64,000 nucleotides of DNA from Natrinema salinisoli. Its GTDB lineage: Archaea > Halobacteriota > Halobacteria > Halobacteriales > Natrialbaceae. Made by a program: the position numbers and the translations under genes. The stretch is from NCBI RefSeq assembly GCF_020405205.1, contig NZ_CP084469.1:1488001-1552000 (forward strand), in the 5' to 3' direction. Below the pieces are notes generated by a model. The model saw only the letters and a list, made by a program, of their open reading frames with translations, was not told where the DNA came from and searched no databases. This document shows, piece after piece, positions 23,008 through 53,644 of the stretch (positions are counted from its first letter, which is position 1; the number at the start of each line of letters is the position of its first letter).

Positions 23008-24621
23008 TCACTCGAGGTAGCCGAGATCGGCGAGTCGGTCCTCGACTGCCTCGTCGGCGGTCGCGACGGAGTCGGTCTCGCCGAGTCGCGGGTACGATCG
23101 CGTTCCCGGCGGCTCGACGCAGGGGAGCGGGCGGCCGTCCATGCGATCGTCGATCGGGACGTCGAGCGTCGCGAGCACGGTCGGCGCGACGTCGAAGAGG
23201 TGGGCGTTGTCGATGCCGTCGGCGTGATCGATATCGACGCCGCGGGCCGCGAACGTCCCCTCGAGCTTGTGGTTCCACGGCTCGCTCGGCGGGCCGAACT
23301 GCTGCTCTCGGAGCGTCGCGGACAGGAAGTGATCGAAATCAGCCGGAACGGTGACGATGTCGACTGCGTGTTCGCTCTCGGGACCGTGAAAGAACTCCTC
23401 TCGAGGCCGAACGGCGTCGAAGATCGGCTCGCCGTCCGGCGTCCGCACGGATCGGAGGGCGTCGATGAGTCGGGTTCGAACGGTCTCGTACTCCTCGGGC
23501 GGGACGACGCCGTCGGGCTCGCGGCCCTCGACGTTGAGCCGGACGCCGAGTTCGACTCGCGACCGCACGTACGCGGTCGACGCCGGAAAGTCGACCTGCG
23601 TCGCGCCCGCATTGACGACCCCCGTCGGCGCGTACTTCGCGACGAGATCCTCGATTCCGAGCCGTTCGAGGACGGCTCCGATGCGCTGGCTGGTCACGCC
23701 GACCCGGGCGGCGGTCGCCATCGCGCGTTCGGCGACGCCCGGATCGCGACTGCCGGTGGCTTCCCCGCGCTTGAGGTCGTTTTCGCGAATCGTCGACCAG
23801 GCCGGCATTCCCCGGCCGCCGTTCTCGGTCGCGACGACCCCCTCTCGGCGAAGGTATTCGTTGACCCGGAATTCGTGCCCGTCGTACGGTCCCATCCCGT
23901 GATCGCTCGCGATGATGACGTTGTCCGGGTCGCACCCGTCGAGGATTTCGGCGACCTGCCGGTCGACCTCGCGGTAAATCCGACGGATCGCCGCGTCGTT
24001 TTCCGGCTCCTTGTGGAAGATCGAGTCGGTTCCCTGGAACTCGACGAAGCCGAACTCGGGATCGTACCGGTCCGCGAGGTACCGAAACGCCTCGCCACGC
24101 ATGCGCGCACACTCGGCGTACGCCGTTCCGAGGTCGGCCGCGTCCTCGTCCGGGTAGACGCGGTAATCACCGATTTCCTCGCGGACGTCCGAGAGGAGAC
24201 CCGACGGATGACAGTCCGGGTCCTCCGGCGCGGTGTACCCCGGGATCAACGCGCCGTCGAACGTCCGGGGCGGATGCGTGACCGGGACGTTAATGACGAC
24301 GCTCGTGAGCCCGCGTTCCGAGAGCAGTTCCCACAGCGCTCGCTCGTGAACGTCGCTCGCGTTGACCACGTCCCAGTCGTATCCCTCGAACCGAAGGAAG
24401 CCGAAGACCCCGTGCTTTCCGGGGTTCTTTCCGGTGTACAGCGACGGCCACGCCGAGGCCGTCCAGGGCGGCATCTGCGACTCGAGGGACCCGCTCGCTC
24501 CCTGGTCGTAGATCGATTCGAGCGTCGGGAGCTCGCCGTCCTCGAACATCGGATCCAGTATCCGATCACAGGCGGCGTCGATCCCGACGAGTAGCGTCCG
24601 AAGAGAGGCGCTGTCGTCCAT
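23008..24621 (-). CDS. Alkaline-phosphatase-superfamily phosphodiesterase (copy 2)
   Basis: 537 residues, close paralogue of the gene at 62403. N-terminal TLLVGIDAACDRILDPMF, then MPPWTASAWPSLYTGKNPGK with the Thr nucleophile region, VIIASDHGMGPYDGHEFRVN with metal ligands, and WNHKLEGTFAARG near the C-terminus, which ends RLADLGYLE. The first metal motif is IDAAC rather than the commoner LDGAT, a feature shared with the 62403 copy (LDAGC). No signal peptide. Likely hydrolyses or transfers a phosphodiester group on a sugar or lipid intermediate; exact substrate unknown. Confidence 0.83.
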   Translation of the reverse strand: MDDSASLRTLLVGIDAACDRILDPMFEDGELPTLESIYDQGASGSLESQMPPWTASAWPSLYTGKNPGKHGVFGFLRFEGYDWDVVNASDVHERALWELLSERGLTSVVINVPVTHPPRTFDGALIPGYTAPEDPDCHPSGLLSDVREEIGDYRVYPDEDAADLGTAYAECARMRGEAFRYLADRYDPEFGFVEFQGTDSIFHKEPENDAAIRRIYREVDRQVAEILDGCDPDNVIIASDHGMGPYDGHEFRVNEYLRREGVVATENGGRGMPAWSTIRENDLKRGEATGSRDPGVAERAMATAARVGVTSQRIGAVLERLGIEDLVAKYAPTGVVNAGATQVDFPASTAYVRSRVELGVRLNVEGREPDGVVPPEEYETVRTRLIDALRSVRTPDGEPIFDAVRPREEFFHGPESEHAVDIVTVPADFDHFLSATLREQQFGPPSEPWNHKLEGTFAARGVDIDHADGIDNAHLFDVAPTVLATLDVPIDDRMDGRPLPCVEPPGTRSYPRLGETDSVATADEAVEDRLADLGYLE

Positions 24622-26442: not shown

Positions 26443-27990
26443 TTACTCCCGAGCGTCGTACTCGACGTCGACCAGTGCGTTCCCGTTCAGCCAGAAGTCC
26501 GTAATGTCGCCGCTGAACCAGTAGGCATCCTTCGAATCGTCGACGGTGCCTTCGACGCTGTTGCCGCCGTCGATCGTGGCGTCTCCCTGGGTCGCTTTCT
26601 CGACCGTGCCGGAGGCCTCGAACGAGTACGCAGCCCGGTCGCCGGTTTCGGTCGCATCGATGACGAGAGCGTTCGACGGACCGCTGGAATCCTCGTCGTC
26701 ACCGTCGGACGTCGCGTCGATGACCTCCTCGACGGACATCTTTTCGCCGTCGAGCTCGACCCACATGACGTCCGGATCGTCGATGGTGATGGAGGTGACG
26801 GGACCGTGGACGCGGTACGCGTCGCCGAATCCGTTTCCGGTGAGCCCCTCGACGGTGGTCGTGCCGTCAGCAACGTCGATCGTGTCGTTTCCGTTTGCGC
26901 CGATCGAATTACCGGCGGGGGAATCGTAGTCAGCCGTTGCCTTCTCGACGTCACCCTCTACGACGAACGAGTACGTATCGTTGTACGCGTCCGACGAGGT
27001 CACGAACGCCAGGAGGTGGGAGCTCTCGGACGAATCAGGTTCTTCGTCCGTGGTGGTCTCGTCCGATCCGCTGGTTCCGTCGGTAGCGGTGCCGGCCGCG
27101 GCCGCTTCGGCCGACGTCGGTGCGCCCACGTCGGCCGGGCCGCGGTTGTTCGGTGACCCGGACGAGGAGCCGTGAATTTCGTTCTGGGAGCGCTCGAGTT
27201 GCTGGGTGCCCCAGCTGGTGTCGTTGACGGTCAGTTCACCGTAGGGGCCACCGGACTCCTGGGAGCCACTGCCGACGCGGATGTCGTAGCCGGACCCGCC
27301 GAAGTCACAGCCGTTGGCCTCGAGCTGATCGCTGAAGAGACACCAGAGCCCGCGGTCGCAGTTCCATGCGACGCAGTTCTGGACGGAGGAGCCGTCCGAG
27401 CCGATCCGAAGGCCCGAGGAGCCACAGTCGGCAGCGTAGGTGTTCTCGATCTGGACGACGCCGCCGTTGCCACGGTCTGCGAGACCGGGGCCGCTGGCGT
27501 AGATACCGTTGTCGGGGAAGCCCTGGATGTTGCACCCGCGGATGGTGAGCGTGCCGGAGTGATCGTTGTGGACGTATATCCCGCCGGGGTCGCCACCGCC
27601 GGCGGCACCGTCACCGAGATAGACGTTCTCGATGAGGCCGCTCGCGTCGGCGCTTTCGACCTCGACGATGATCACCTGACTGCCGGGGTCGTGATCCCAC
27701 TCACCTCTGACGCCGATGTTGCGCATCTCGAAATCGTCTGCGGTTGCGGAGATGCTGTAGCCGGCACCACTGGCCGTGATGTCGATGAGCTTGTTCTCCC
27801 ACGTTTCGCCGCTGGAGATGTCTTTTTCGAACGTTTCGCCCGGCGACACTTCGATTACGTCGTAGTCGTCGTCGGCGGCGACCGCTTGCGTCCCGAGTGC
27901 GAATGCACTGGCGACACCTGTGGCCGCTTTCAAATAGGATCGTCGATCGATGTGACCGATTCTCGCATTGTCCTGAGAGTCTTCGCTCAT
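26443..27990 (-). CDS. Tat-exported beta-helix protein with two C-terminal repeats
   Basis: 515 residues. N-terminal Tat signal IDRRSYLKAATGVASAFALG, then about 260 residues of right-handed parallel beta-helix: FEMRNIGVRGEW, IENVYLGDGAAGG, LTIRGCNIQGFPDNGIYASG and SSVQNCVAWNCDRGLW. A hinge GAPTSAEAAAAG and an acidic Thr/Ser linker follow, then two copies of a repeat domain of about 75-100 residues (YSFVVEGDVEKA...DAYRVHGPVTSI; YSFEASGTVEKA...DAYWFSGDITDF), ending VDVEYDARE. No C-terminal anchor. Extracellular; may bind, cut or scaffold polysaccharide. Paralogues at 46292 (no repeats) and 47934 (four repeats). Confidence 0.82.
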   Translation of the reverse strand: MSEDSQDNARIGHIDRRSYLKAATGVASAFALGTQAVAADDDYDVIEVSPGETFEKDISSGETWENKLIDITASGAGYSISATADDFEMRNIGVRGEWDHDPGSQVIIVEVESADASGLIENVYLGDGAAGGGDPGGIYVHNDHSGTLTIRGCNIQGFPDNGIYASGPGLADRGNGGVVQIENTYAADCGSSGLRIGSDGSSVQNCVAWNCDRGLWCLFSDQLEANGCDFGGSGYDIRVGSGSQESGGPYGELTVNDTSWGTQQLERSQNEIHGSSSGSPNNRGPADVGAPTSAEAAAAGTATDGTSGSDETTTDEEPDSSESSHLLAFVTSSDAYNDTYSFVVEGDVEKATADYDSPAGNSIGANGNDTIDVADGTTTVEGLTGNGFGDAYRVHGPVTSITIDDPDVMWVELDGEKMSVEEVIDATSDGDDEDSSGPSNALVIDATETGDRAAYSFEASGTVEKATQGDATIDGGNSVEGTVDDSKDAYWFSGDITDFWLNGNALVDVEYDARE

Positions 27991-28285
27991 TTCACGTTAT
28001 TCCTGATAGTATGAAGTTCTGAATATTCGCCTTCACATGACTCACATATATATGGGGAGTGATATCCGGGTCGGTGAATACGGAAATGAGTGACAAATAC
28101 GCCCGCTCAGACCCGCTCGGTTCGCAAGAGGTCAGGGAATAGAAAGCAATGGGCTCGGAGCGGGAGGAGACCGGAGTCAAAAAGGACGGAGAAATTTCAG
28201 GAGTGGTTGAGCGATTACAATGTCTTGTTTTGGTATGTTACGTTTGAGATAACGATATGGATCGATGAGTGTCCATACATCCATC

Positions 28286-29539
28286 ATGAAACGACGGGCG
28301 TATCTCGCGGCCGCAGTGATGGGGCTCGGCGGGTGTACTGCACAGCGCGACGATGCGAACGAGAACGGAACGAGTGGACGAGTGGACGAAACGGACGGCG
28401 AGAAATCCGATTCCGACGACGAGACGTCGACTGCTGACGGTGATTCGTCGCAAGCCATCGAGATCATCGACGATTTCGGCGATCTCTCCCGCTGGGACGT
28501 TCTGGCCGGATCGCTCGATGTCGACCGGAAGCGGGGAACCGACGGCTCACAGGCTGCAGTCCTCGCGGCCGCGGGAAGTGACCAACGGGTATCGATCAAA
28601 CGGGAGCTGTCGGCACCCCTGGACTGTTCGACGACGATTCCCGGAGTATCGATCGCCGTAGAGGAGTCTGTGAGACCGATTATCCAACTGTTCGATTCCG
28701 AGGGCGATCACGTGGAGTTCCGGCGTGGAATCAAGGGCGATCGCCGGAGTATGCGGTACGATTTCGGCCTCAGTGATATCGACGGTGATCCCGATCTTTC
28801 GGCGATCACCGAGATTCGGATCGCCCTCTGGGTCGGTGACCAGTCGAGAACGCTCCGGGTCGACGAACTCTTCCTCGCTCCGAAACCCGACACCGGGACC
28901 GTGATGATCCAGTTCGACGACGGGTACGAAACCGACTACACCGAGGCGCTACCGATCCTCGATCGGTACGGGTACCCGGCCGTCACGTTCGTCAATCCCG
29001 TGACGATCGGTACCGCCGACCGACTCGATCTCGCTCAGTGCAAGCGGTTACGGGACGCCGGTTGGACCGTCGGGAATCACACGTACTCTCACGCCCGCCT
29101 CGAGAACCTGACTCCGGACGAGCAGGCCGACGAAATCGGGAAAGCGAAAGCGTGGTTGCTCGAGCACGGCTTCGAACGCGGCGCGCGGTACTTCGCGTAT
29201 CCGTTCGGGGAGTGGGACGAACACACGCTCGAGATCGTCGACGAGAACCACGAGATAGCCTTTTGGGGCGGCGAAGACGTCTACGGACACGCCGTCAATC
29301 CGTTGTTATATCCTCGAGTCGGCGAGCCGTCGGCCGAGACGGCGATCGAGTTGCTCGAGAGAGCGGCGGCGTGGGGCGGGCACGTTGCGTTCCTTTACCA
29401 CGAACTCAGCGGTGAACTGCGCAGCGACTTCGAATCGACGATCGAGCACGCTCACGACCTGGAGTCGGCGGGCGAGATCCGATTCGTCACGCCGTCCGAT
29501 CTCGAGACGGAGCTGGCAGCGTATTCTCACACCGAGTAA
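28286..29539 (+). CDS. Secreted lipoprotein polysaccharide deacetylase (copy 3)
   Basis: 417 residues from ATG 28286 (an ATG at 28265 is also in frame). It begins MKRRAYLAAAVMGLGGCTA: twin Arg, short hydrophobic stretch and lipobox ending at Cys17, so a Tat-exported lipoprotein. An acidic linker leads to a beta-sandwich-like region (residues about 65-200, LDVDRKRGTDGSQA to FLAP). The NodB domain follows with VMIQFDDGYETDYTEALPIL, VGNHTYSHARLENLT, YFAYPFGEWDE and FLYHELSG, a complete metal and catalytic set. It likely de-N-acetylates polysaccharide outside the cell. Divergent from the beta-helix gene. Confidence 0.86.
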   Translation: MKRRAYLAAAVMGLGGCTAQRDDANENGTSGRVDETDGEKSDSDDETSTADGDSSQAIEIIDDFGDLSRWDVLAGSLDVDRKRGTDGSQAAVLAAAGSDQRVSIKRELSAPLDCSTTIPGVSIAVEESVRPIIQLFDSEGDHVEFRRGIKGDRRSMRYDFGLSDIDGDPDLSAITEIRIALWVGDQSRTLRVDELFLAPKPDTGTVMIQFDDGYETDYTEALPILDRYGYPAVTFVNPVTIGTADRLDLAQCKRLRDAGWTVGNHTYSHARLENLTPDEQADEIGKAKAWLLEHGFERGARYFAYPFGEWDEHTLEIVDENHEIAFWGGEDVYGHAVNPLLYPRVGEPSAETAIELLERAAAWGGHVAFLYHELSGELRSDFESTIEHAHDLESAGEIRFVTPSDLETELAAYSHTE

Positions 29540-29775: not shown

Positions 29776-31578
29776 ATGTCGAGTCAGCGTTCGCAGACGA
29801 CGACGCCGAAAGAGAGTGGAGCGCTCGCGGTCGGATTTCTCGCACTGGCCGGTGCCATCGGTGTCGCCCACGTGACGCCAGCCGACGGCTACGAACTCTC
29901 GCTGTACGCGGGGACGCCGACGACGGTCTGGATCCTCCTCGGCGTCTCGTTCTGCCTGTCGCTGGCCGTCGCACTCGCGACGACCGCGCCATGGTACCGT
30001 CGCCTCTCGCTCTGTCTGGGCGCTGGAGCAGCGATCGCCTTCGTCGGGATGCCCGTCCTCCGCGGCTACCACTTCATCTCCGGTGGGGACGCACTCACGC
30101 ACCTCGGCTGGGCGCGAGGGATTCGGGACGGGATGTTCAGCCCGCTCGAGTTGCGATACCCCGGGTTGCATACCGTCTCGACGCTGTTTAGTACCGCACT
30201 CGGAATCGACCTCACGCACGCGATGATGCTCGTGATCGTGCTCCTCTTCGGACTCTTTTTCCTGTTCGTTGCGCTGTCGACCGACCTCGTCTTCGAAAAT
30301 CGATACAGCGTGACGGTCGGCGCGTTCTCGGCGTTTTTGCTCCTCCCGATCACGACACTCAGCACGTTTGTCACACCGCACCCAATGTCACAGTCGATTC
30401 TGTTCTCCGCAGTCATCGTCTATTCTCTCCTGAAGTATATGCAGGGAAACCAGGTGGCGGCATCGGTGTCTTCGCTCGGCGTGCTGTTGGCCATGTTGTC
30501 GATCGCAGTCGTCCTCTACCACCCGCAACTCGCAGCCCACTTGCTGGTCGTCTTCGTCGGGATCTGTGCCGTCCAGTTCCTCTTCCGCCGGTTCGGTTCG
30601 ACGACCCCGATCGCGACGCATCGATCGGTGTACGGGCAGACTGCGATCCTCACGGGCGGGTTTCTGCTCTGGGTCGCGAATCACGGGCTCCTCGTGGATG
30701 TGATCAGGTTCCACCTGGTCAGTACGCTCGAGTACTTCCTCGGTGGGACCGGGTCCGCGGGTGACGCCATCGATTCTCAGAGCAACTCGATCGCGCAGAT
30801 CGGTGGGAGCGTCGTCGAAATCGTGCTGAAGCTGCTCGGCCCGTCGCTCGTTTTCGGCGTGCTCGCCGCGTTGCTCGTGGGCTGGACGCTCATCGAGAAC
30901 GACGGTCGCCTTCTCCGGGAGACCGAGGGAGTGATTCACTACTTCACCGTCGCCCTCGTCGGGTTGGGCGGGCTGTTCGCCGTCTATTTCTTCGGATCGA
31001 CCGAAAAGATGTACTTCCGCGTGTTCGGATTCACACTGTTGTTCATCACGATCATGGGTGCTGCGGCGATCGCGTACGGGATGGACGCCCTCTCGAAGAA
31101 TCGGTCGACCACAGCCGTCCACAGTATCGCCGTTCTCGGATTCGGTGTGCTACTCGTCGTCTCGCTGCTCGCGGTATTTCCGTCGCCGTATATCTACGGT
31201 ACGTCTCCGCACGTGACAACGCAAGCCATGGACGGCCACGAAACCGCCTTCGACCGCGGAGACGACGACATCCCGTACATCGGCATTCGTAGCGGACCGA
31301 ATCGGTACGTGGACGCCACGACTGGCGACCTCGAGCGAACGGAACGCTACGAGGGGATCAGTGGGCCGGAAATCGAGGAGGGGATCAGCAGACAGTACGA
31401 GGACGATCGATATCTCGTCGTCAAGCAGCGCGATCTGGACCGGGAACTGATCGCGTTCAAGGAACTGCGCTACACCGAGGCGCAACTGAACTCGATCGAA
31501 TCACAACCGGGAGTCAATCGGGTACAGACCAACGGTGGGTTCGAACTGTACCACGTTCGCGGAACGGCGGACGCCTGA
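29776..31578 (+). CDS. Large polytopic membrane protein, GT-C-like (copy 1)
   Basis: 600 residues with about eleven or twelve hydrophobic helices (first near residue 16, last near 450) and a soluble C-terminal domain of about 140 residues, probably outside. After the third helix comes the loop SGGDALTHLGWARGI, with acidic residues where GT-C glycosyltransferases carry their catalytic acid, followed by YPGLHTVSTLFS. A paralogue at 43880 keeps GDALTHLGW and YPGLHTI and the extracellular C-terminal region (FDVYDELNYHEA there, IAFKELRYTEAQ here). A lipid-linked-sugar glycosyltransferase or polysaccharide polymerase is the best guess; no named family is certain. Confidence 0.75.
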   Translation: MSSQRSQTTTPKESGALAVGFLALAGAIGVAHVTPADGYELSLYAGTPTTVWILLGVSFCLSLAVALATTAPWYRRLSLCLGAGAAIAFVGMPVLRGYHFISGGDALTHLGWARGIRDGMFSPLELRYPGLHTVSTLFSTALGIDLTHAMMLVIVLLFGLFFLFVALSTDLVFENRYSVTVGAFSAFLLLPITTLSTFVTPHPMSQSILFSAVIVYSLLKYMQGNQVAASVSSLGVLLAMLSIAVVLYHPQLAAHLLVVFVGICAVQFLFRRFGSTTPIATHRSVYGQTAILTGGFLLWVANHGLLVDVIRFHLVSTLEYFLGGTGSAGDAIDSQSNSIAQIGGSVVEIVLKLLGPSLVFGVLAALLVGWTLIENDGRLLRETEGVIHYFTVALVGLGGLFAVYFFGSTEKMYFRVFGFTLLFITIMGAAAIAYGMDALSKNRSTTAVHSIAVLGFGVLLVVSLLAVFPSPYIYGTSPHVTTQAMDGHETAFDRGDDDIPYIGIRSGPNRYVDATTGDLERTERYEGISGPEIEEGISRQYEDDRYLVVKQRDLDRELIAFKELRYTEAQLNSIESQPGVNRVQTNGGFELYHVRGTADA

Positions 31579-32059: not shown

Positions 32060-33520
32060 ATGACAGTCACGGAGCAGCTGCGTTCGCGATTCAAGTCCGA
32101 GTTCGCCGGACGGATCGTCGCGATGATCTCCAGCGGCCTCCTGATGGTCCTGTTGGCCCGGCTACTCGGCCCGAGCGAGTACGGACTGTTGTTCCTCGCC
32201 ATCGCGGTCTTCGGAGTGCTCGGTATCGGGAGCAAACTCGGGATCGCGAAATCGTGCGCGCGGTACGTTACCGAGTACAAACAGAACGATCCGTCTCAGA
32301 TCCCCCACATCCTGCGCATCTCGATGCTGTTCAACGTCGGGACGATCCTGGTAGTGGGACTCGGCCTGCTTATCGGCCACCGCAAGTTGTCGGTCGCCCT
32401 GGGCGAGCCGTCCTTGGTCCCGTTTCTCCTGCTCGGCGTCCTCTTCCTCGCGTTTCAGGCGCTGGCGACGTTCACGCGACTCGTTCTCCAGGGGTTCGAG
32501 GAGATCAAGCTCGCGGCGACGCTGCACGCGGTCAATCGGGTTTCGCGACTCGTCTTCGCCGTCGGATTCGTCGTGCTCGGATTCGACGCCATCGGCGCGC
32601 TCTTCGGCTACATACTGAGTTTTATCGTCGTGGTGCTTCCCGGTCTGTGGATCGTCTACAGTCGGTTTTACCGCGGCCACGATGCGGCGACGATAGAGTC
32701 CGGCCTCCGACGACGGATCGGCGAGTACACGATCCCGTTGACGGCGACCAGCACGGCGAACGTCCTCGACAAACGGGTCGACACGATCCTCATCGGGGTC
32801 TTTCTGACGCCAGTCGCGGTCGCCTACTACGAACTCAGTAAACAGATCGTCGAATTCCTCGAGACACCGGTTTCGGCGCTCGGGTTCACGCTTTCGCCGT
32901 CGTTCGGTGCGCAAAAGGCGGACGGGAACATCGAGCAGGCCGCGCGGGTGTACGAAGAAGCGCTCACCCACTCGTTGTTGTTATACATCCCGGCCGCGGC
33001 CGGACTCGTGCTCGTCGCCGAACCGACGATCGGACTGGTGTTCGGCGAGGAGTATCTCGGTGCGGTCACCGTCTTGCAGGTCCTGTCGCTCTACGTGATC
33101 CTGCAGGCGATCACGAAGATCACCAGCAACGGCCTCGACTTTCTTGGACGGGCGAAAGATCGCGCGATCGTCAAGGGCATTACGGCGGTTCTCAACGTCG
33201 GCCTCAACGTCGTTCTGATCCCGCGGTACGGCGTCGTCGGCGCGGCGGTCGCGACGGTCTTTACGTACTCGATGTACACCGCCGCGAACGTATTCATCAT
33301 TCACCAGGAGTTCGGACTGCGTCTCGGACACCTGTTCCGGCGGCTGACGGCGATCATCAGCGTCACGCTCGTGATGGCCGCAGTCGTCTCGTCTACCAAC
33401 GACGCGATCGACGGCTGGGTGTCGCTCGCCGGTATCGTTACGCTCGGCGTCGCCGTGTGGGCAACGCTGTCGATCGCGACGGGACTCCTCGACGTTCAGA
33501 AGATCAGGGCAGCAACATGA
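32060..33520 (+). CDS. Oligosaccharide flippase, Wzx-like (copy 1)
   Basis: 486 residues with about 14 predicted membrane helices, typical of the polysaccharide transporter branch of the MOP superfamily. N-terminal LLARLLGPSEYGLLFLAIAVF and SCARYVTEYKQND, and mid-protein NVLDKRVDTILIGVFLTPVAVAYYEL, are family landmarks. It would flip a lipid-linked glycan to the outside. The paralogue at 50451 shares these segments. It overlaps the following methyltransferase-kinase gene by 4 nt, so the two are translationally coupled. Confidence 0.88.
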   Translation: MTVTEQLRSRFKSEFAGRIVAMISSGLLMVLLARLLGPSEYGLLFLAIAVFGVLGIGSKLGIAKSCARYVTEYKQNDPSQIPHILRISMLFNVGTILVVGLGLLIGHRKLSVALGEPSLVPFLLLGVLFLAFQALATFTRLVLQGFEEIKLAATLHAVNRVSRLVFAVGFVVLGFDAIGALFGYILSFIVVVLPGLWIVYSRFYRGHDAATIESGLRRRIGEYTIPLTATSTANVLDKRVDTILIGVFLTPVAVAYYELSKQIVEFLETPVSALGFTLSPSFGAQKADGNIEQAARVYEEALTHSLLLYIPAAAGLVLVAEPTIGLVFGEEYLGAVTVLQVLSLYVILQAITKITSNGLDFLGRAKDRAIVKGITAVLNVGLNVVLIPRYGVVGAAVATVFTYSMYTAANVFIIHQEFGLRLGHLFRRLTAIISVTLVMAAVVSSTNDAIDGWVSLAGIVTLGVAVWATLSIATGLLDVQKIRAAT

Positions 33521-35400
33521 GCGAGAACACACCGACATACGATCCCGAATCGCGCCACGAGTTCCCCGGTGACGTCCTCGTCTGTCCGGACTGTTCGAAT
33601 CCGCTATCGTCCGGTGAACGTTGCTGTGGCAGCTGTGGAACCGGCATATACGAACGGAAGGGAATCCTCTCGTTCAGTACCGAAAGCGATGACTCGGATC
33701 CGTATCTCTCCGAACACCGACTCGAAGAACTCGCGGCCGCTGTGGCGAATCACCCCGTTCGGACGGCGGCGGCGGACGTCCTCGCCGACCGCGATCGGTC
33801 GGACGCGCTGGCCGAACTGTTCGACGTCCGGCGCGACCTGTGGCAGGTCCTCGTCGCCGAACACATCTCCGGGCGGTGTCTCGACCTCTACAGCGGGTAC
33901 GGCCGCCGCGCCATGGTCCTCGCCGAACGGACCGACGCGGTCTACACCGTCGATCCTTCGCTATCGAAGCTGCGTATCGTCGACGACCGCGACGATTACG
34001 CCAGTTCCGATCGCGTGGTCCCGATCCACACGACCGATCGACGACTCCCGTTTTCGGCCGGCGCGTTCGACACCATCGTCGCCGATTTCACCGGCAAGCG
34101 CGACCTTCGCTCCCGACTGGATCGGCTGACCGACTGCCTCGCGGCCGACGGGTCGCTGATCTTCACCGCCGACGGATGGCCGTCGAACACGCCCCTCGCG
34201 CGCGTCCTCGGTTTCGATCGGGCCGACCAGGAGTCCTCGAGATCGATCGGTGATCTGAGCCCGGGAACCGCGGACGGATACCGATCCCTGGCGCGATCGG
34301 TCGGGTTCGACGATATCTCCGTCTACACGCTGTTTCCGGACGCGTCTCGTCCGCTGTATGCGTTCGACGTCGATTCCGACCGAGCCCTGGAAACGATCCT
34401 CAGCTCCCACTCGAACGCCTACGACCGGTTCGGAGACGCGATCGAACCCGCCACGAGACGCGGACACAGGCTCGTCAAACAGTGCTATCCGACGTATCTC
34501 GTCGCGTGCACGAACAGTCCCGAACCGCCGGCGTTCGAGTTTTCGGATCCGCTTGTCGTTCAGGGTCGCACGCGAACGGTCGTTCTAAATCTGGACGAGT
34601 CGGGGATCGACACCGTCTGGAAGATACCGAATCGGAACGCACACCGACCGTATACGAGCAACGAGAACGCCGTCATCGCCGAGCTCAGATCCAGAGAGGC
34701 CCCGATCACGTCGACGCTCCCGGCCGGCGAAGCGCTCGAGTCCCGATTCGGCCCGGTGAGAAAGGAACGACCGGTCGACGGCACCCCTCTCGAGGAGGAG
34801 ATCGACGGCGGCGTCGAGTCGTTCGAGCGAGTGCTCCGGCTGAGCTTCGACTGGCTCATCGACTTCCAGCGCGCGTTCCGGAGCGAGTCGTTCGTCCGGT
34901 CCGCCGACGCCGTCCGCGAGGACTTGACGTTCGAACCGGCCGATCTCGTGGCGTCGCGTATCGACGAGGACGTCGAAACGTTCACGACGCCCGTCCACGG
35001 CGACTATATGCCCGGTAATATTCACCACGAGGACGGGGAGATCACGTCGGTCATCGACTGGGAGTACGGGAGTCTGGCGGCGTCGCCCGTGGTCGATGCC
35101 GGATTCCTGCTCCTCAACGTGGCGTCGTGGGTTGTTCAGAACTTCCGGGAGCGGGTTCGGACGATACTGTGCCGGCGAAACGAGTACTCGCGTCGCGTCC
35201 GGTCGTGCGTTCGCGATTACTGTGACGCCGTCGGTCTTCCGTACCGGTCGTTCGAACTGTATTTGCCGGCGGCGTACCTGCACCGCATCGTCCGGGATCG
35301 GGAACTGGACGCCGTGAGGACGTATACGAGGCAGTTGGACACGACCATCCGTCGAACGAAGGTCCTCCTCGACGTGCGCGACGAGATGATCATTTCTTGA
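33517..35400 (+). CDS. Zinc ribbon-methyltransferase-APH kinase fusion (WbdD-like layout)
   Basis: 627 residues from ATG 33517, overlapping the flippase stop as ATGA. Three parts are visible. Residues 21-45 form a zinc ribbon (Cys23, 26, 37, 40). Residues about 105-330 are a class I SAM methyltransferase (CLDLYSGYGRRAMVLAE, YTVDPSLSKL, FDTIVADF). Residues about 350-627 are an aminoglycoside-phosphotransferase-type kinase: VWKIP (Lys369), NENAVIAEL, catalytic HGDYMPGNI (Asp496, Asn501) and metal-binding IDWEYG (Asp514). All kinase motifs are intact. Methyltransferase followed by kinase is the order in bacterial WbdD, which caps O-polysaccharide chains with a methyl phosphate. A capping role here is inference. 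Confidence 0.8.
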   Translation: MSENTPTYDPESRHEFPGDVLVCPDCSNPLSSGERCCGSCGTGIYERKGILSFSTESDDSDPYLSEHRLEELAAAVANHPVRTAAADVLADRDRSDALAELFDVRRDLWQVLVAEHISGRCLDLYSGYGRRAMVLAERTDAVYTVDPSLSKLRIVDDRDDYASSDRVVPIHTTDRRLPFSAGAFDTIVADFTGKRDLRSRLDRLTDCLAADGSLIFTADGWPSNTPLARVLGFDRADQESSRSIGDLSPGTADGYRSLARSVGFDDISVYTLFPDASRPLYAFDVDSDRALETILSSHSNAYDRFGDAIEPATRRGHRLVKQCYPTYLVACTNSPEPPAFEFSDPLVVQGRTRTVVLNLDESGIDTVWKIPNRNAHRPYTSNENAVIAELRSREAPITSTLPAGEALESRFGPVRKERPVDGTPLEEEIDGGVESFERVLRLSFDWLIDFQRAFRSESFVRSADAVREDLTFEPADLVASRIDEDVETFTTPVHGDYMPGNIHHEDGEITSVIDWEYGSLAASPVVDAGFLLLNVASWVVQNFRERVRTILCRRNEYSRRVRSCVRDYCDAVGLPYRSFELYLPAAYLHRIVRDRELDAVRTYTRQLDTTIRRTKVLLDVRDEMIIS

Positions 35401-35715: not shown

Positions 35716-36774
35716 ATGATTGAGGTTCACCAGCTCACGGACGAGGAACAGTGGAATACGTACGTCGATCGTTCCCCTGCGGGGTCGATCTTTCATCGAT
35801 CCGAGTTCCTCCGGGCGATCGCGGCGGAAACGGGGATGGAACTCGAACTCCTCGTCGGAAAAAACGGGGAGCATCCGATCGGAATCCTGCCGCTATTCAC
35901 CGATTCGACGGGACCGTTCAGGATGGTCTTCTCGCCGCCACCGCACGCGGGCGTTCCGCATCTCGGCCCCGGAATGATGCTCGATCCGAACATCAAGTAT
36001 CGGAAAGCGGCGCTGCGTACCAAGGAGTTCGTCGAAGCGTGCGTCGACTGGATCGATCGCGAGCACGATCCGCACTATATCAGGATCATCACCAATACCG
36101 AATTCGGGGAAGTTCGCCCGTTCCGCTGGCTCGGGTTCGACGTCACGCCGCGGTTCACGTACGAACTGGACATCGATCGCGGGGAATCCGACCTCCTCCG
36201 ATCGTTCTCGCGGGACGCGCGCAGCTCGATTCAGGACAACTACAACCCCGAGTACGCGATCGCAGACGGCGGACAGCGACTCCTCGAGGACGAGACCGAT
36301 CCCGAATACACGATCGAGAACGGCGGCGAAGCGGAGATCGAGTACCTCGCCGATCGGCTCGAACAACGGTTCGACGAACAGGGCGAAGCCTTCCCGCTCT
36401 CGGCCTCGTTCCTCAGGACCATTTACACCGATCTTCCGGACGAGACGATCGACGTCTATCAGTTCCGGAGCGACGGGCAGCCGGTTTCGGGTCGAATCTC
36501 GCTCTTCTACGGCGGTTGGCTGACGTACTGGCAGGGCGTCCCGAAACCGTCGGTCGACGTCGACGTCCCGATCAACGATCTCCTCAACTGGCGCTCGATC
36601 CGTCGCGCGCGCGAACTGGAATGTGACACCGCCGAACTGTCCGGCGCGAACATCGAGCGGCTCTGGGATTACAAAGCGAAATTCAACCCCGAACTGGCTA
36701 CGTATTACATCCTCGAACGAACGAGCGCGAGCACGGCACCGCTTCTCAAGCTGTACAAGTGGTGGCAAGCGTGA
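35716..36774 (+). CDS. FemAB-like GNAT acyltransferase (copy 2)
   Basis: 352 residues, paralogous over its full length to 24810-25820. N-terminal WNTYVDRSPAGSIFHRSEFL, VFSPPPHAGVPHLGPGMML, SFSRDARSSIQDN, and C-terminal LWDYKAKFNPELATYYILE. A stretch around residues 175-215 contains two similar segments (NPEYAIADGG; DPEYTIENGG), a small internal duplication absent from copy 1. Expected to transfer an acyl or aminoacyl group to a sugar. Followed 55 nt later by a GT4 gene on the same strand, probably one transcript. Confidence 0.78.
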   Translation: MIEVHQLTDEEQWNTYVDRSPAGSIFHRSEFLRAIAAETGMELELLVGKNGEHPIGILPLFTDSTGPFRMVFSPPPHAGVPHLGPGMMLDPNIKYRKAALRTKEFVEACVDWIDREHDPHYIRIITNTEFGEVRPFRWLGFDVTPRFTYELDIDRGESDLLRSFSRDARSSIQDNYNPEYAIADGGQRLLEDETDPEYTIENGGEAEIEYLADRLEQRFDEQGEAFPLSASFLRTIYTDLPDETIDVYQFRSDGQPVSGRISLFYGGWLTYWQGVPKPSVDVDVPINDLLNWRSIRRARELECDTAELSGANIERLWDYKAKFNPELATYYILERTSASTAPLLKLYKWWQA

Positions 36775-36829: not shown

Positions 36830-37762
36830 ATGAACGTGTTACAGCTAACGACGAACGCGGAGGCGACCTACATCACGAACCAGGTCGAAGCACTTCGCGA
36901 ACTCGGCGTCGAGAGCGACGTCCTCGAGGTCCCCGATCGCTCCGAATCGGACGGACGGAGCCCGGTCGATTACCTCCGGTTCTGTCCGCTCGTTCGGAAC
37001 CATCTGTCGTCGGAGTACGACCTCGTCCACGCGAACTTCGGGCTGACCATCCCGGCTGCACTGACCCAGACCGGGGTTCCCGTCGTGACGAGTCTGGTCG
37101 GGAGCGATCTCATGGGCCGATTCGGCGTCGTTACGAAGTCGTTCGCTCGGTTCTGTGACGAGGTCATCGTCGTCAGTCCGGAAATGGCCGAACTGCTGTC
37201 CACGGACGCGACCGTGATCCCCTACGGAATCGATTTCGATCTCTTCCATCCGATGGAGCGCGCGACCGCCCGGAACGCGGTCGGCTGGGAGACCGACGGC
37301 TATTGCGTATTATTCCCGTACAGTCCCGATCGAGCCGTGAAGGATTATCCGAAGGCCGAACGCGTCGTCGACGCCGCGTCGTCAGAGCTCGGCGAAGACA
37401 TCGAGTTGAAGGTGATCACCGGAAACGATTACTCGGAGATGCCCTACTACATGAACGCCGCGGACGTACTCTTACTCACCTCCCGTCGCGAGGGGTCTCC
37501 GGTCACCGTCAAAGAGGCGCTCGCGTGTAACACCCCCGTCGTGGGAACCCCCGTCGGTGACGTTCCCGAGCGGGTATCGGACGTCGACGCGAGCGGCACT
37601 GGCGACTCGGTCGACGAGTTAGCGACGCTGGTCCGTCGTGCACTCACGGGGGACGGATGCGAGAACGGTCGGGAGGAAGTGTGGAACCTCCGACTCGAAC
37701 GAATGGGTGAGCGGATTCTCAGCGTTTACGAGCGAGCGGTCGAACGGCGCTCGACGGGCTGA
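36830..37762 (+). CDS. GT4 glycosyltransferase (copy 2)
   Basis: 310 residues from ATG 36830 (MNVLQLTTNAEATYITNQV), aligned with the GT4 at 9739. GT-B fold: LVHANFGLTIPAAL in the acceptor half; YYMNAADVLLLTSRREGSPVTVKEALACNTPVV in the donor half, with the EX7E pair. The upstream in-frame extension is a shadow of the FemAB-like gene and was not used. Cytoplasmic; donor unknown. Confidence 0.84.
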   Translation: MNVLQLTTNAEATYITNQVEALRELGVESDVLEVPDRSESDGRSPVDYLRFCPLVRNHLSSEYDLVHANFGLTIPAALTQTGVPVVTSLVGSDLMGRFGVVTKSFARFCDEVIVVSPEMAELLSTDATVIPYGIDFDLFHPMERATARNAVGWETDGYCVLFPYSPDRAVKDYPKAERVVDAASSELGEDIELKVITGNDYSEMPYYMNAADVLLLTSRREGSPVTVKEALACNTPVVGTPVGDVPERVSDVDASGTGDSVDELATLVRRALTGDGCENGREEVWNLRLERMGERILSVYERAVERRSTG

Positions 37763-37970: not shown

Positions 37971-39035
37971 CTACAGTTGACGACGTCCGATCAGTGTTGC
38001 AACCAGTGCCGCCAGAACCGCGGCAGTAACGCCGAAGCCGGGCATCTCGTCGTCGCCCTCGTTGACGGTCACCTCCGTCGTCGCGTTCGCTGCCCCGACC
38101 GTGTACGTGCCGGCTTCGTCGAACGTGGCGTTCGTCGACAGCGTGGTCGTTTCGCCGGGCTCGAGCGACACCGTCTGCTCGTCGACGGTCTCGCCGTCGA
38201 CGGTGAACGGAACGGTAACGTTTCCGGGGGTCGCGCCGTCGTTTTCGACCGTGGCCTCGACGGACACGGAATCACCCGGCCTCACCGACTCGGTCACGTT
38301 CAGGTCGGTAACCGAATGCGAGGTGCACTCCCCAGACGTGATCACGACCGGTTCGTTCATGTCGAGCGAGGTCCGCTCGCGACCGGTGTCGGTCCCCGAA
38401 ATCACTTCCCAGTCGCGGACTCGGCCGTCGTACAACTGCTTGGCAGCGTCGTCGTTGAACCGCGGCTCGATCGTGATCGAGAACTCGTCGTCCAGCCCGC
38501 CGTTGAACGCGGCACCGTCGCTCCGGTTCTCGGACCAGACCCACGTGATGCGACTCGAGTCCCCGCTGTGATCGAACTCGTCGTCGGCGCCGTCGTACCC
38601 GTCGTCCTCGACGACCCACTCGCCGTCTTCGGGCAAGCCGCTGAACGTCATCGTCGCCGCGCCGCCAGGCGAGTCGCCATCGTATCGGTCGTGAAGCAGT
38701 ACGAGACTGAGCCCGTCACTCCCCTCGTACAGGAAGACGGAACTCGTATCGTCTTCCTGGAGGTGAGTCGTCCCGTGGGAGCTGTAGGAGTACGAGCTCG
38801 GGGTGGTGTTCGGCGTGCGGTAGTCGTAGAATTCCTCGATGGTCCGGGCGCCGTCACCGATCGGTTCGACGGTCACACAGTCGTCTCCCTGTGCCACGGC
38901 GTACTCGTCCGGATCGGGGGGAGCAGTCGTTGCGCCGGCCACTGCCGTCGCACTGACGGCGAGCGCGACCACTACTGCAATCGTGGCGAGAATCGAATAC
39001 GTTACAGTATTCGTGGTACTGTTTCGTCGTGTCAT
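37971..39035 (-). CDS. PGF-CTERM surface protein with CARDB-like domain (copy 1)
   Basis: 354 residues. N-terminal signal helix (ILATIAVVVALAVSATAVAG), a beta-rich Ser/Thr/Asp-rich domain of about 210 residues (YDYRTPNTTPSSYSYSSHGT, SSVFLYEGSDGLSLVLLHD), then a CARDB-like Ig-type domain (SVRPGDSVSVEATVENDG, DGETVDEQTVSLEPGETTTL). It ends in MPGFGVTAAVLAALVATLIGR plus a short basic tail: a PGF-CTERM sorting signal recognised by archaeosortase A, after which the protein becomes lipid-anchored. Several N-x-S/T sequons. Tandem paralogue at 39408. No archaeosortase gene is in the window. Confidence 0.88.
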   Translation of the reverse strand: MTRRNSTTNTVTYSILATIAVVVALAVSATAVAGATTAPPDPDEYAVAQGDDCVTVEPIGDGARTIEEFYDYRTPNTTPSSYSYSSHGTTHLQEDDTSSVFLYEGSDGLSLVLLHDRYDGDSPGGAATMTFSGLPEDGEWVVEDDGYDGADDEFDHSGDSSRITWVWSENRSDGAAFNGGLDDEFSITIEPRFNDDAAKQLYDGRVRDWEVISGTDTGRERTSLDMNEPVVITSGECTSHSVTDLNVTESVRPGDSVSVEATVENDGATPGNVTVPFTVDGETVDEQTVSLEPGETTTLSTNATFDEAGTYTVGAANATTEVTVNEGDDEMPGFGVTAAVLAALVATLIGRRQL

Positions 39036-39407: not shown

Positions 39408-40481
39408 TTACCCTCGATACCGAACGAACAGTACGCCGAGAGCTGCCATCAGTATCACGGCACCGACGCCGAACCCGGGCATTCGATCGCCGCTATCGGT
39501 GACAGTCATTTCCGTCGTTCGGTCGCCAACCTCGACGGCGTACGTCCCCGCCTCGTCGACCGTTGTCGTCGTCGACAGGGTAGCGGTCTCACCGGGCTCG
39601 AGCGTCACTTCCTGCTCGTCGACCGTCTCACCGTCGATAACAAACGGAATTTCCGTCGATATCGTCCGCTCACCGTCGTTCGTGACGGTCGCCGTAATAT
39701 CGACGGGGTCGCCCGCCGTCACCGTTCCGTCCGTCTCCAATTCGGAGATCGCGTACGAGGTGCAGCCGCCGGATCGGAGATCGATCGGTTCGGACATGTC
39801 CAGTGACGTCCGTTCGTGACCGTCCTCGGTCGCCGAAAGCACCTGCCAGTCGGTTATCTCGCCCTCGTACACGCGGAAGTCGGCCGCATCGTTAAATGCC
39901 GGCTCGATCGTGAGATCCACGTCGTCTTCCAGACCGCCGCGGAAGGCGGCCCCGTCGTTTCGGCCGTCAGTGTAGGCCCAGGTGATTCGACTCGAGTCCC
40001 CGCTGTGATCGAACTCGTCGTAGCGACCGTCGTAACTGTCGTCCTCGACGGCCCACTCGCCGTCTTCGGGAAGCCCGTCGAACTGCATCGTCACCGCACC
40101 ACCCGCCGAGCTACCGTTGTACTGATCGTGAAGCACAACGAGACTGACACCGTCACTCCCCTCGTACAGGAAGAGCGAGCTCGTGTCGTCCTCCTGAAGG
40201 TGGGTGGTGCCAAACGAGCTATAGTCGTACGAACTCGGGGTCGTATTCGGCGTTCGATAGTCGTAAAACTCCTCGACGGACTGCGAGCCGTCGCCGAGCG
40301 GTTCGATAGTGTAACACTCATCACCTTGCACGACCGCGTACTCGTCGGCGTCCGACGGTGCGGATTGACCCGCGACGGTACCGACACCGACCGCCGTTCC
40401 GAACGCGAGCGCGGTGACTGCTGCAATTGCGGCGAGAACCGAACACGTCCCGATTACGGAAATATTGTCGCGTAATGTCAT
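39408..40481 (-). CDS. PGF-CTERM surface protein with CARDB-like domain (copy 2)
   Basis: 357 residues, paralogous along the whole length to 37971-39035: signal helix after MTLRDNISVIG, EEFYDYRTPNTTPSSYDYSS, FLYEGSDGVSLVVLHDQYN, the CARDB-like domain (TVTAGDPVDITATVTNDGER; VDEQEVTLEPGETATLS) and the terminal MPGFGVGAVILMAALGVLF with RYRG. Secreted and then anchored through archaeosortase A processing. Partner or enzymatic role unknown; the two copies probably arose by local tandem duplication. Confidence 0.88.
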   Translation of the reverse strand: MTLRDNISVIGTCSVLAAIAAVTALAFGTAVGVGTVAGQSAPSDADEYAVVQGDECYTIEPLGDGSQSVEEFYDYRTPNTTPSSYDYSSFGTTHLQEDDTSSLFLYEGSDGVSLVVLHDQYNGSSAGGAVTMQFDGLPEDGEWAVEDDSYDGRYDEFDHSGDSSRITWAYTDGRNDGAAFRGGLEDDVDLTIEPAFNDAADFRVYEGEITDWQVLSATEDGHERTSLDMSEPIDLRSGGCTSYAISELETDGTVTAGDPVDITATVTNDGERTISTEIPFVIDGETVDEQEVTLEPGETATLSTTTTVDEAGTYAVEVGDRTTEMTVTDSGDRMPGFGVGAVILMAALGVLFVRYRG

Positions 40482-42210: not shown

Positions 42211-43518
42211 TTATTTTTCCGACCGGACGAGACGTAGGCCCGCTTTCGCCGCCGTCCAGGCCGGATACGCAGTGTTGTAGACCGTGTTCGGTGCGTTTCG
42301 CGCGCCCGCCCGGAGGAGCCGATGGGAGAGCGGCGGCTCCGACGCCGAGATCAGGTCGTCCAGATCGACGGTCTCGAGCCACTCGAAAAAGGTTCGTTCG
42401 GCGGGCGTCGCGGGCTCCGTGTCGCGGACACGCTCGCGGATGTCTGCCCACATGTGCCGTTCGTCCCGCCCGAGGACCCACTCGCCGCGCTCGAGGGAGC
42501 GACGGAGGCGGTGGTAGTCGCCGTCGTCGAAGGGATAGCCGTGATCGTCGGGCTCGAGGCCCGAAAGGCGGAGGCCAACTGCGGTTCGGTAACACTTCTC
42601 GCACACACCGCAGTTACCGTCCATTCGATCGTTGCAGGTCTGGAGCTGCAGCGTCGGCGATTCGGTCCGGACGTAGTCGGCGATCCGATCGAGTCGTTCC
42701 TGACGAGTGAGATCGTAGCCGTCGTGGTGACACTGCGTCCCGGCCCACCGGACGTGGTCGTCGATGTCGGGACGAGAGCCCCATTCGAGATCGATTCCGT
42801 CCCAGTGAGTCGCGGCGACGTAGAGATCCGTCATCCCGCGCGCGTAGGCCAGCGGCGCACAGAGTCCGAGCAGCCCCAGGCCGTGGCCGACGGAGCTGTA
42901 CCAGCCGCCGTCGACGTGGCGCTTGTAGTGGGCCAGCAACATCGGGTGGTCGAGGAACGACAGCATGTTCGACTGGACGAACGCCGTCTCGCAGTCGTGC
43001 TCGTGGGCAAAGCTCGAGACGCGCGACCGGAGGGCGTCCCACTTCTCGTCGTCGCCGGCGTCCGGGGTGATCGTCCAGCCCCGGATGCTGATCAGGGTCG
43101 GCGACTCCTCGCGGTGGCGGACGTACGAATACGTCGAGTCGACACCGCCGGTAAAGAGCAGGCCGGTCTCGTCGGTCCCCTCGGGGTCCGGATCGATCGT
43201 GCTGCGGGCATAGAGCGTCCCACCGTCGATGAACTCGTACATGGCAGACAGCGACTCCGCGACGTCCTCGAGCGCGCGGGCGAACGTCGCGTCGACCTCG
43301 TCGACGTAGACGTCGGCCCCGTTGGCCCACGCGACCGGACAGACCTGCGCGAGGACGGGAATCGCGAGCACGCCGTCGGGGACGTCCGCGATCGAAACGT
43401 CGTAACTGGTTCGGAACGGTTCGTCGGTCACGAACCGCTCCAGGTCGGCCGAAGCGCGAACCGAACACTCGAGCGTTCCGTCGTTGGCAGTGAGCCGGTC
43501 GATGATAATCGATGACAT
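42211..43518 (-). CDS. PP-loop ATP pyrophosphatase family enzyme, QueC-like
   Basis: 435 residues. A PP-loop motif LLFTGGVDSTYSY (about residues 120-132) binds ATP for adenylation, and a Cys cluster TCNDRMDGNCGVCEKCYRT late in the protein looks like a structural zinc site, as in QueC-type enzymes. The N-terminal 115 residues and the C-terminal helix-rich 100 residues are extra. In this locus, ATP-dependent amidation of a sugar acid or acetamido group is a reasonable guess; a nucleoside role is the alternative. Neither can be settled from sequence. Confidence 0.72.
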   Translation of the reverse strand: MSSIIIDRLTANDGTLECSVRASADLERFVTDEPFRTSYDVSIADVPDGVLAIPVLAQVCPVAWANGADVYVDEVDATFARALEDVAESLSAMYEFIDGGTLYARSTIDPDPEGTDETGLLFTGGVDSTYSYVRHREESPTLISIRGWTITPDAGDDEKWDALRSRVSSFAHEHDCETAFVQSNMLSFLDHPMLLAHYKRHVDGGWYSSVGHGLGLLGLCAPLAYARGMTDLYVAATHWDGIDLEWGSRPDIDDHVRWAGTQCHHDGYDLTRQERLDRIADYVRTESPTLQLQTCNDRMDGNCGVCEKCYRTAVGLRLSGLEPDDHGYPFDDGDYHRLRRSLERGEWVLGRDERHMWADIRERVRDTEPATPAERTFFEWLETVDLDDLISASEPPLSHRLLRAGARNAPNTVYNTAYPAWTAAKAGLRLVRSEK

Positions 43519-50000: not shown

Positions 50001-50450
50001 GCGGTCGGGTAATACCAACATGCGCTCATAAACTTTCCCCTTAATTCTGTATAAAATAAACAGACTTTCAGAGATTTAGATAATATATTCTATTATTTTA
50101 TAGTATTTTAATACGTATGTTTTATATTGAACCCGCCGGGCGGCGACTGGGTAATACCGTATTACCGCTGTTCCGCCCGGGAATTCGGACCCTCTCCATG
50201 ACGATACGGTTCAACGGGACGGGAGGACCAGTACTCGACGCGAGAGGGATCGTAGTAACCGACGGCGATCGAACACGACGACGAAATTGGCTCGGCAACT
50301 CATCGCGAAAAACGGACAACGGACAGTCCAGAGCCGTTTGACGGTAGAGATCGGGATAGTCCGTCCAGCTCCGAGCTGCCAAAACGAGTTGCCGAATCGA
50401 ACGCACGTCGGTCGATGTCTGGTCCCTCGCGTCCGGCAGCCGTTGAAGCG
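50001..50450. other. Intergenic region with a strong AT-rich island
   Basis: 450 bases upstream of the four-repeat beta-helix gene. Bases 50041 to about 50133 are almost entirely A and T (runs such as TATAAAATAAA and TATTTTATAG), extreme for this genome. The remainder is ordinary. No gene supported. Confidence 0.6.
50025..50036 (-). promoter_or_regulatory. Beta-helix promoter AAAGTTTATGAG
   Basis: Minus-strand copy of the 12-mer found at 46256-46267, 24 nt before the ATG at 50000. It fixes the start codon choice for this gene. Confidence 0.65.
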
Positions 50451-51914: not shown

Positions 51915-51947
51915 CGTGAGCAGTGAGTGGGGGCTATCGCCGCCCGA

Positions 51948-53096: not shown

Positions 53097-53644
53097 GTGC
53101 GGACCGTCACCTCACCCGTCATTAGTTTTAATCCGGTTACTTCACTGTGGCTAACTATCTCTCGGCGTACTGTCCGTATACGATACCGCTTACCGGGCGT
53201 GACATCCATCCATCCCGACGGACCTACACCACGGCGGGCGGTGGGACGGGACTGGCGGCTTCCGGACCGATGTCCTTCTCGAGGGAGTCGCGAATCGAGG
53301 CGGGCGTGGACGCCACGGGTAGAGTACTGGTACTGGTCGAGAAAACGGCTCCCGCGCCGAGAACAGCTGCTGGCACGCGACTGTTCCGGTAGTGGATGAC
53401 GGTCGTCGGGAGCCGTTCGACTCTACGTAAGCGGATGCTAAAAAGCTTCTTTGCGGTCACGAGGGGACGCCGCGGTGATCGGATACGGGGGTCACGCGAC
53501 GGGACCGTACTCGGTGTTCGCGAAGACGATCAAATCAGTGCTTAAGAAACCGACAACCGGCAGCGAACGCCGCTCGAACGGACGTCAGCGGACAGTACTA
53601 TCGGGGTCCGGTCGCCACACGATCGCAACCGTCGCGATTAAGGG
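53097..53644. other. Intergenic region, no gene supported
   Basis: 548 bases between the oxidoreductase start and the end of the DUF7344 gene. Apart from the TATA-like box at 53124-53132, I see short open frames on both strands with no family resemblance. Confidence 0.5.
53124..53132 (-). promoter_or_regulatory. TATA box of oxidoreductase-flippase operon
   Basis: Minus-strand ATTAAAACT, 27 nt before the ATG at 53096. A conventional haloarchaeal TATA element, in contrast to the ATAACAAAG type elsewhere in the locus. Confidence 0.5.

What the first reader, a model, noticed from the sequence alone, without database searches (positions are those of the whole stretch)
33517..35400. Archaeal methyltransferase-kinase fusion with the layout of WbdD, a polysaccharide chain terminator
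One protein joins a zinc ribbon, a SAM methyltransferase and an APH-type kinase with all catalytic residues intact, and is translationally coupled to a Wzx-like flippase. In bacteria, WbdD (methyltransferase then kinase) phosphorylates and methylates the non-reducing end of O-polysaccharide and so sets chain length. The same domain order in a haloarchaeal polysaccharide locus suggests chain-end capping, which I do not know to be described in archaea. Known WbdD systems use ABC export, not a flippase, so the analogy may be partial.
Basis: partly seen in the sequence, partly recalled or inferred. Interest (0 to 1): 0.75.

Follow-up and report, generated by a model that had tools for sequence, protein, structure and literature searches.

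The report
Archaeal methyltransferase–kinase beside a sugar-lipid flippase
A protein found only in salt-loving archaea, in these searches, joins a methyl-adding domain to a phosphate-adding domain and is usually encoded right after a sugar-lipid flippase, so it probably tags surface sugars with phosphate (and sometimes methyl) before export, echoing a bacterial chain-capping enzyme but without that enzyme's length-measuring and export parts.

Summary
Window 33517-35400 encodes one 627-aa protein: zinc ribbon, class I methyltransferase (MT), APH-type kinase. It overlaps the upstream Wzx-like flippase by 4 bp (ATGA). A confident model (pLDDT 87.7) has WbdD as its top Foldseek match in the PDB, over both domains. 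The protein belongs to a haloarchaeal family (29 of 392 genomes of the order). The kinase signature is kept in all 39 genes or gene pairs read. The MT's SAM motif is eroded in 13 of 39, in at least three lineages, so phosphorylation looks like the core activity and methylation optional. Five genomes carry MT and kinase as two overlapping genes. Among 34 fused copies, 20 have the flippase immediately upstream on the same strand. A GT-C-fold protein and a secreted beta-helix protein often lie nearby. The chain-length reading is not supported: no coiled-coil ruler in any member, no Wzt_C exporter in the genome, no sequence-level homology to WbdD beyond the SAM motif, and a flippase as the linked exporter. 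Best explanation: it phosphorylates, and where the MT is intact methylates, a sugar of a lipid-linked glycan before flipping. Substrate and both activities are untested. New variant of a known kind.

The parts
33517..35400 (+). Fused zinc ribbon - methyltransferase - APH-type kinase (MTK), 627 aa
   Evidence: model pLDDT 87.7, pTM 0.88
33583..33636 (+). Zinc ribbon C23-x2-C26 ... C37-x2-C40
   Evidence: Cys invariant in the eight closest sequences; model aligned from residue 20 to RlmA(I) 1p91, Z 14.4
33877..33909 (+). SAM-binding motif I of the methyltransferase domain, CLDLYSGYGRR (residues 121-131)
   Evidence: motif eroded in 13 of 39 relatives
34543..35397 (+). APH-type kinase domain (residues about 343-627)
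   Evidence: PF01636 over cut-off; predicted fold; K369 invariant
34996..35064 (+). Kinase catalytic signature HGDYMPGN...VIDWE (residues 494-516)
   Evidence: invariant in the 26-row alignment and kept in 39 of 39 genes or pairs, W to F in some split forms
33517..33520 (+). ATGA stop-start overlap between flippase and MTK
   Evidence: same 4-bp overlap in 8 of 34 fused loci
32060..33520 (+). Wzx/MOP-type polysaccharide flippase
   Evidence: PF01943 1.9e-24, PF13440 8.3e-23
29776..31578 (+). 600-aa membrane protein, DUF6541-like, predicted GT-C fold (oligosaccharyltransferase/ArnT-like)
   Evidence: model pLDDT 69.6; Z 22.3 to STT3 8agc_A, 19.4 to AglB 3waj, 18.0 to ArnT 5f15; a protein in the same position on a related locus is annotated DUF6541
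28265..29539 (+). Polysaccharide deacetylase-family lipoprotein
   Evidence: PF01522 2.9e-25
26443..27990 (-). Secreted (Tat-type signal, by eye) beta-helix-family protein, recurrent neighbour
   Evidence: beta-helix Pfam hits in 4 of 14 members of the family
35716..36774 (+). FemAB/GNAT-type transferase downstream
   Evidence: PF13480 7.5e-14
36830..37762 (+). GT4-type glycosyltransferase downstream
   Evidence: PF13692 2.2e-12

Best explanation
MTK is a cytoplasmic glycan-modifying enzyme. Its APH-type domain transfers phosphate from ATP to a hydroxyl of a sugar on a lipid-linked glycan. In lineages with an intact SAM motif, including this one, its MT domain adds a methyl group to the same substrate, either to the phosphate as in WbdD or to a hydroxyl. 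The modified lipid-linked glycan is then moved outward by the co-translated Wzx-like flippase and transferred by an extracytoplasmic enzyme, plausibly the neighbouring GT-C protein. Shown by computation: domains, fold, kinase residues, conserved linkage, split-gene equivalents. Inferred: the activities, a glycan substrate, the order of events. Unknown: which sugar, terminal or internal, methyl on O or on P.
For: Kinase signature kept in 39 of 39 genes or pairs. Confident model whose top Foldseek match is WbdD across both domains, E 2.1e-8. Flippase immediately upstream on the same strand in 20 of 34 fused loci, adjacent in 23, 4-bp overlap in 8, although this genome has only six flippase genes over cut-off. 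Separate MT and kinase genes with a 4-bp overlap in five genomes, also in glycan-gene surroundings. GT-C within six genes in 10 loci, beta-helix protein within four genes in 17. Same module on a Halomontanus rarus plasmid. Precedent: Klebsiella O7 ORF6 combines an MT with a kinase most similar to the aminoglycoside kinase AmiN, and phosphorylates then methylates glycan ends (PMC11231755).
Against: No activity has been measured. APH-family kinases also act on small molecules, so a free sugar or another metabolite is possible. Eleven of 34 fused copies have no flippase next to them and eight have none within four genes. The flippase-adjacent loci are related by descent and are not independent counts. 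MT activity is uncertain even here.
Confidence: 0.6

Rival explanations
1. True chain-end capping: MTK phosphorylates and methylates the non-reducing end of a polysaccharide and so limits chain length, as WbdD does.
For: Same domain order; WbdD is the top structural match; MT and kinase both present here.
Against: No coiled-coil ruler in any member, with WbdD as positive control; no Wzt_C domain in the genome; linked exporter is a flippase; MT motif eroded in a third of members.
Confidence: 0.12
2. Phosphorylation of a free sugar or other precursor: the kinase makes a sugar phosphate for a nucleotide-sugar or lipid-donor pathway and the MT part is a binding or accessory domain.
For: The APH superfamily contains small-molecule kinases (general knowledge); MT motif loss in several lineages.
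Against: Fusion or tight coupling to an MT and to a flippase rather than to nucleotide-sugar genes.
Confidence: 0.17
3. Drug-modifying or resistance cassette: an RlmA-like zinc-ribbon rRNA methyltransferase joined to a macrolide/aminoglycoside-type kinase, with a MATE-superfamily exporter.
For: RlmA(I) 1p91 is tied for the highest Z against the model; weak APH/Mph sequence matches.
Against: The exporter matches Polysacc_synt far better than MatE (1.9e-24 against 4.8e-9); neighbours are glycosyltransferases, deacetylases and a GT-C protein; MT motif erosion.
Confidence: 0.04
4. Methyl-dependent tagging of a dolichol-phosphate-linked oligosaccharide, like the transient methylation reported in Halobacterium, with the kinase secondary.
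For: Methylation at the non-reducing end of the DolP-linked tetrasaccharide, with no methyltransferase assigned in that paper (PMC8674786); MT next to a flippase.
Against: In this family the kinase, not the MT, is the invariant part; that paper argues methylation is not essential for crossing the membrane.
Confidence: 0.07

Closest known systems
WbdD (E. coli O9a; PDB 4azt, 4ax8, 4azs)
   Same: MT domain followed by a protein-kinase-superfamily domain in one protein; top structural match of the model; Pfam gives WbdD both MT and APH matches; polysaccharide setting.
   Different: WbdD has a C-terminal coiled-coil ruler, recruits the polymerase WbdA, works with ABC export, and its kinase is described as eukaryote-like (PMC3482155). 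Here: zinc ribbon, no ruler, flippase partner, no sequence homology beyond the SAM motif.
Klebsiella pneumoniae O7 ORF6 N-terminal module
   Same: MT followed by a kinase whose closest solved relative is the aminoglycoside kinase AmiN; shown to phosphorylate then methylate a glycan (PMC11231755).
   Different: ORF6 carries a CBM, a coiled coil and glycosyltransferase modules and serves an ABC-export system; its sequence was not compared here.
Three-component extracytoplasmic glycosylation (donor synthase, MATE-family flippase, GT-C; Citrobacter youngae O1/O2)
   Same: Flippase linked to a GT-C-fold transferase (PMC11127046).
   Different: The donor-making enzyme there is a polyprenyl-phosphoribose synthase; no methyltransferase-kinase takes part in donor formation.

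Membership tests
WbdD-type chain terminator | Methyltransferase domain followed by a kinase domain in one protein | tested here: met
WbdD-type chain terminator | Sequence homology to WbdD across both domains | tested here: not met
   hhalign of family profile against WbdD: probability 5%, 37 aligned columns, SAM motif only
WbdD-type chain terminator | C-terminal coiled-coil molecular ruler | tested here: not met
   crude heptad score at most 0.43 in 34 members against 0.68 in WbdD; shuffled background about 0.3. The last model helix is residues 604-626
WbdD-type chain terminator | Accompanied by an ABC exporter with a glycan-end-binding Wzt_C domain | tested here: not met
   no PF14524 match in the whole genome; linked exporter is a Wzx-type flippase
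WbdD-type chain terminator | Phosphorylates then methylates the non-reducing end of the glycan | not testable with these tools
   needs enzyme assay and glycan analysis
APH / PF01636 phosphotransferase family | Profile match above the curated cut-off and HGDxxxxN ... DxE-type signature | tested here: met
   35.2 bits against 23.2; signature invariant
Class I SAM-dependent methyltransferase | Rossmann-type MT fold | tested here: met
   Z about 13-14 to many MTs over residues 56-335
Class I SAM-dependent methyltransferase | SAM-binding motif and acid after strand 2 | tested here: inconclusive
   G127, G129 and D146 kept here, third Gly missing; motif eroded in 13 of 39 members
Wzx/MOP flippase (neighbour gene) | Polysacc_synt profile above cut-off | tested here: met

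The most novel reading that the evidence does not exclude
Haloarchaea carry an independently built methyl-phosphate capping system: an MT-APH kinase, not homologous to WbdD across its length by sequence, caps a lipid-linked glycan before a flippase, so that phospho(methyl) tagging acts as a gate for flipping or for GT-C transfer, rather than as a signal to an ABC exporter.
Probability: 0.2. Interest if true: 0.75.

Novelty: new variant of a known kind. Interest (0 to 1): 0.5.

Why it matters
In the papers searched I found no glycan phosphorylation or methyl-phosphate tagging system described in archaea. A conserved flippase-linked methyltransferase-kinase would give a genetic handle on how haloarchaea modify lipid-linked glycans before export, and would show that the MT plus kinase pairing known from bacterial chain terminators also occurs outside ABC-dependent export. 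The unequal conservation (kinase invariant, MT motif repeatedly eroded) gives a direct prediction: phosphate in all carriers, methyl in some.

Tried and rejected
Peptide-pattern scan of genome contigs with the single protein and of viral contigs: no relatives. The alignment A1 was too diverse for a pattern scan. A second genome-contig scan with A2 found three haloarchaeal relatives and one weak Verrucomicrobiales match in the kinase. No phage match; two plasmid matches, both haloarchaeal. Phylum-wide profile search outside the order hit only stretches within the methyltransferase part. I considered the beta-helix protein as a dedicated partner and rejected that: its family is in 115 of 125 genomes of the taxonomic family, whereas MTK is in 28, so only the physical clustering is informative. 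Promoter/terminator consensus scan gave nothing above shuffles. PDB sequence searches matched MTs and APH kinases separately and listed no WbdD among the rows shown. Literature searches found no description of this archaeal family.

Full report
Observation. The ORF at 33517-35400 (+) encodes 627 aa and starts at the stop codon of the upstream flippase gene (ATGA overlap). Pfam places an APH kinase at 448-556 above cut-off and a methyltransferase at 122-212 below cut-off; the zinc ribbon is seen as four cysteines, invariant in the eight closest sequences, without a Pfam hit above cut-off. The upstream gene is a Polysacc_synt-family flippase. The AlphaFold model is confident (pLDDT 87.7, pTM 0.88).

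The family. The protein has relatives in 29 of 392 sampled genomes of the same order and 28 of 125 genomes of the same taxonomic family. A profile search of 393 genomes of the phylum found the fused form only within the order; hits outside it lay within the methyltransferase part alone. Named carriers include Natronolimnohabitans and Halomontanus rarus, where the gene lies on a 402-kb plasmid. In five genomes, four of one genus plus Halorussus limi, the zinc ribbon-methyltransferase and the kinase are two genes overlapping by 4 bp. Of the two split methyltransferases scanned, both match Pfam methyltransferase families above cut-off, one of them strongly. This supports treating the fused MT segment as a genuine methyltransferase by descent.

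Uneven conservation. In a 26-row alignment the invariant positions include K369, H494, G495, D496, N501, D514, W515 and E516 of the kinase and none of the SAM motif. Over 39 genes or pairs, the kinase signature is always kept (with F for W in some split forms, and R for K in the N-lobe of split forms), while a simple rule (G129 and an acid at 146) scores the MT motif as eroded in 13; on a kinase-domain tree this needs at least three changes. The window's copy sits in a 14-member clade in which 12 members have both the motif and the zinc ribbon. The rule is mine and crude: it measures motif loss, not activity.

Gene neighbourhood. Genes were called with a home-made composition scorer and grouped by BLAST and HMMER. 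Of 34 fused copies, 20 have the flippase immediately upstream on the same strand, 23 have it adjacent, 26 within four genes; 8 overlap by 4 bp and four more lie 3-6 bp apart. This genome has six flippase genes over cut-off, so the linkage is not chance, though the loci share ancestry. A beta-helix family protein lies within four genes in 17 loci; it is widespread in the taxonomic family, so it is a frequent neighbour, not a dedicated partner. The 600-aa membrane protein upstream of the flippase in the window has a GT-C fold by prediction: moderate confidence (pLDDT 69.6), but the top matches are all GT-C enzymes, Z 22.3 to yeast STT3 and 19.4 to archaeal AglB. The rest of the window carries glycosyltransferases, a UDP-sugar dehydrogenase, an epimerase, oxidoreductases and deacetylases. 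Some compact loci (L046, L047, L052) have flippase, MTK and beta-helix protein with no glycosyltransferase cluster recognised within six genes.

Comparison with WbdD. Foldseek ranks WbdD first, E 2.1e-8 over both domains, with a large rmsd (17.8 A) that suggests a different domain arrangement or poor global superposition. Profile comparison with the WbdD sequence of E. coli HS aligns only 37 columns around the SAM motif. WbdD-type terminators are described in the literature as having a coiled-coil ruler and an ABC exporter that recognises the capped end (PMC3482155, PMC11231755, PMC11127046). No fused member shows a coiled coil by a crude heptad score, while WbdD does, and the genome has no Wzt_C match. 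Klebsiella O7 ORF6 is a second, experimentally shown MT-kinase with an AmiN-like kinase, so this combination exists in more than one form.

Interpretation. The most economical reading is cytoplasmic phosphorylation, with optional methylation, of a lipid-linked glycan before flipping and external transfer. The kinase assignment is strong; the glycan substrate is inferred from linkage; methylation in this copy is plausible; terminal position and chain-length control are not supported by any result here. A flippase-dependent route would let such an enzyme mark each exported unit rather than measure a long chain, but this argument rests on general knowledge of Wzx pathways.

Limits. Neighbour counts depend on my gene caller, which adds some spurious small ORFs. 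Taxon searches sampled genomes. Structure matches show fold, not function.

Noticed in passing
window 29776-31578 and 43880-45673: Two copies of a 600-aa membrane protein family (DUF6541-like); the model of the first matches GT-C enzymes (STT3/AglB/ArnT).
   Followed up: partly
window 47934-56041: Second block with a flippase (50451-51914), a large beta-helix protein (47934-50021), a small regulator-like gene (53645-54280) and a TFB-like gene (55082-56041). The TFB and regulator-like families also lie upstream of flippase-MTK in L044, L054 and L087-L089, and upstream of MTK in L050, so this may be the same locus type without an MTK.
   Followed up: no
L047, L052, L056: The flippase/MTK/beta-helix block lies next to a dnaK-like gene in L047, L052 and L056, with a TrkA-like gene on the other side in L052 and L056; L046 also has both genes in its 19 kb. 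This suggests a preferred insertion site.
   Followed up: no
L103 (NZ_CP119800.1 9905-29794): Halomontanus rarus plasmid carries DUF6541, flippase, MTK, beta-helix, deacetylase, beta-helix, ArsR and TFB genes in one block.
   Followed up: partly
window 15971-17563 and 23008-24621: Two type I phosphodiesterase/nucleotide pyrophosphatase family genes within the glycan region.
   Followed up: no
window 42211-43518: 435-aa protein with a PP-loop-like look and a CxxC cluster (by eye), no Pfam match; relatives recur in L044, L050 and L054.
   Followed up: no
window 37971-39035 and 39408-40481: Two related secreted proteins ending in a PGF-CTERM-like tail (by eye).
   Followed up: no
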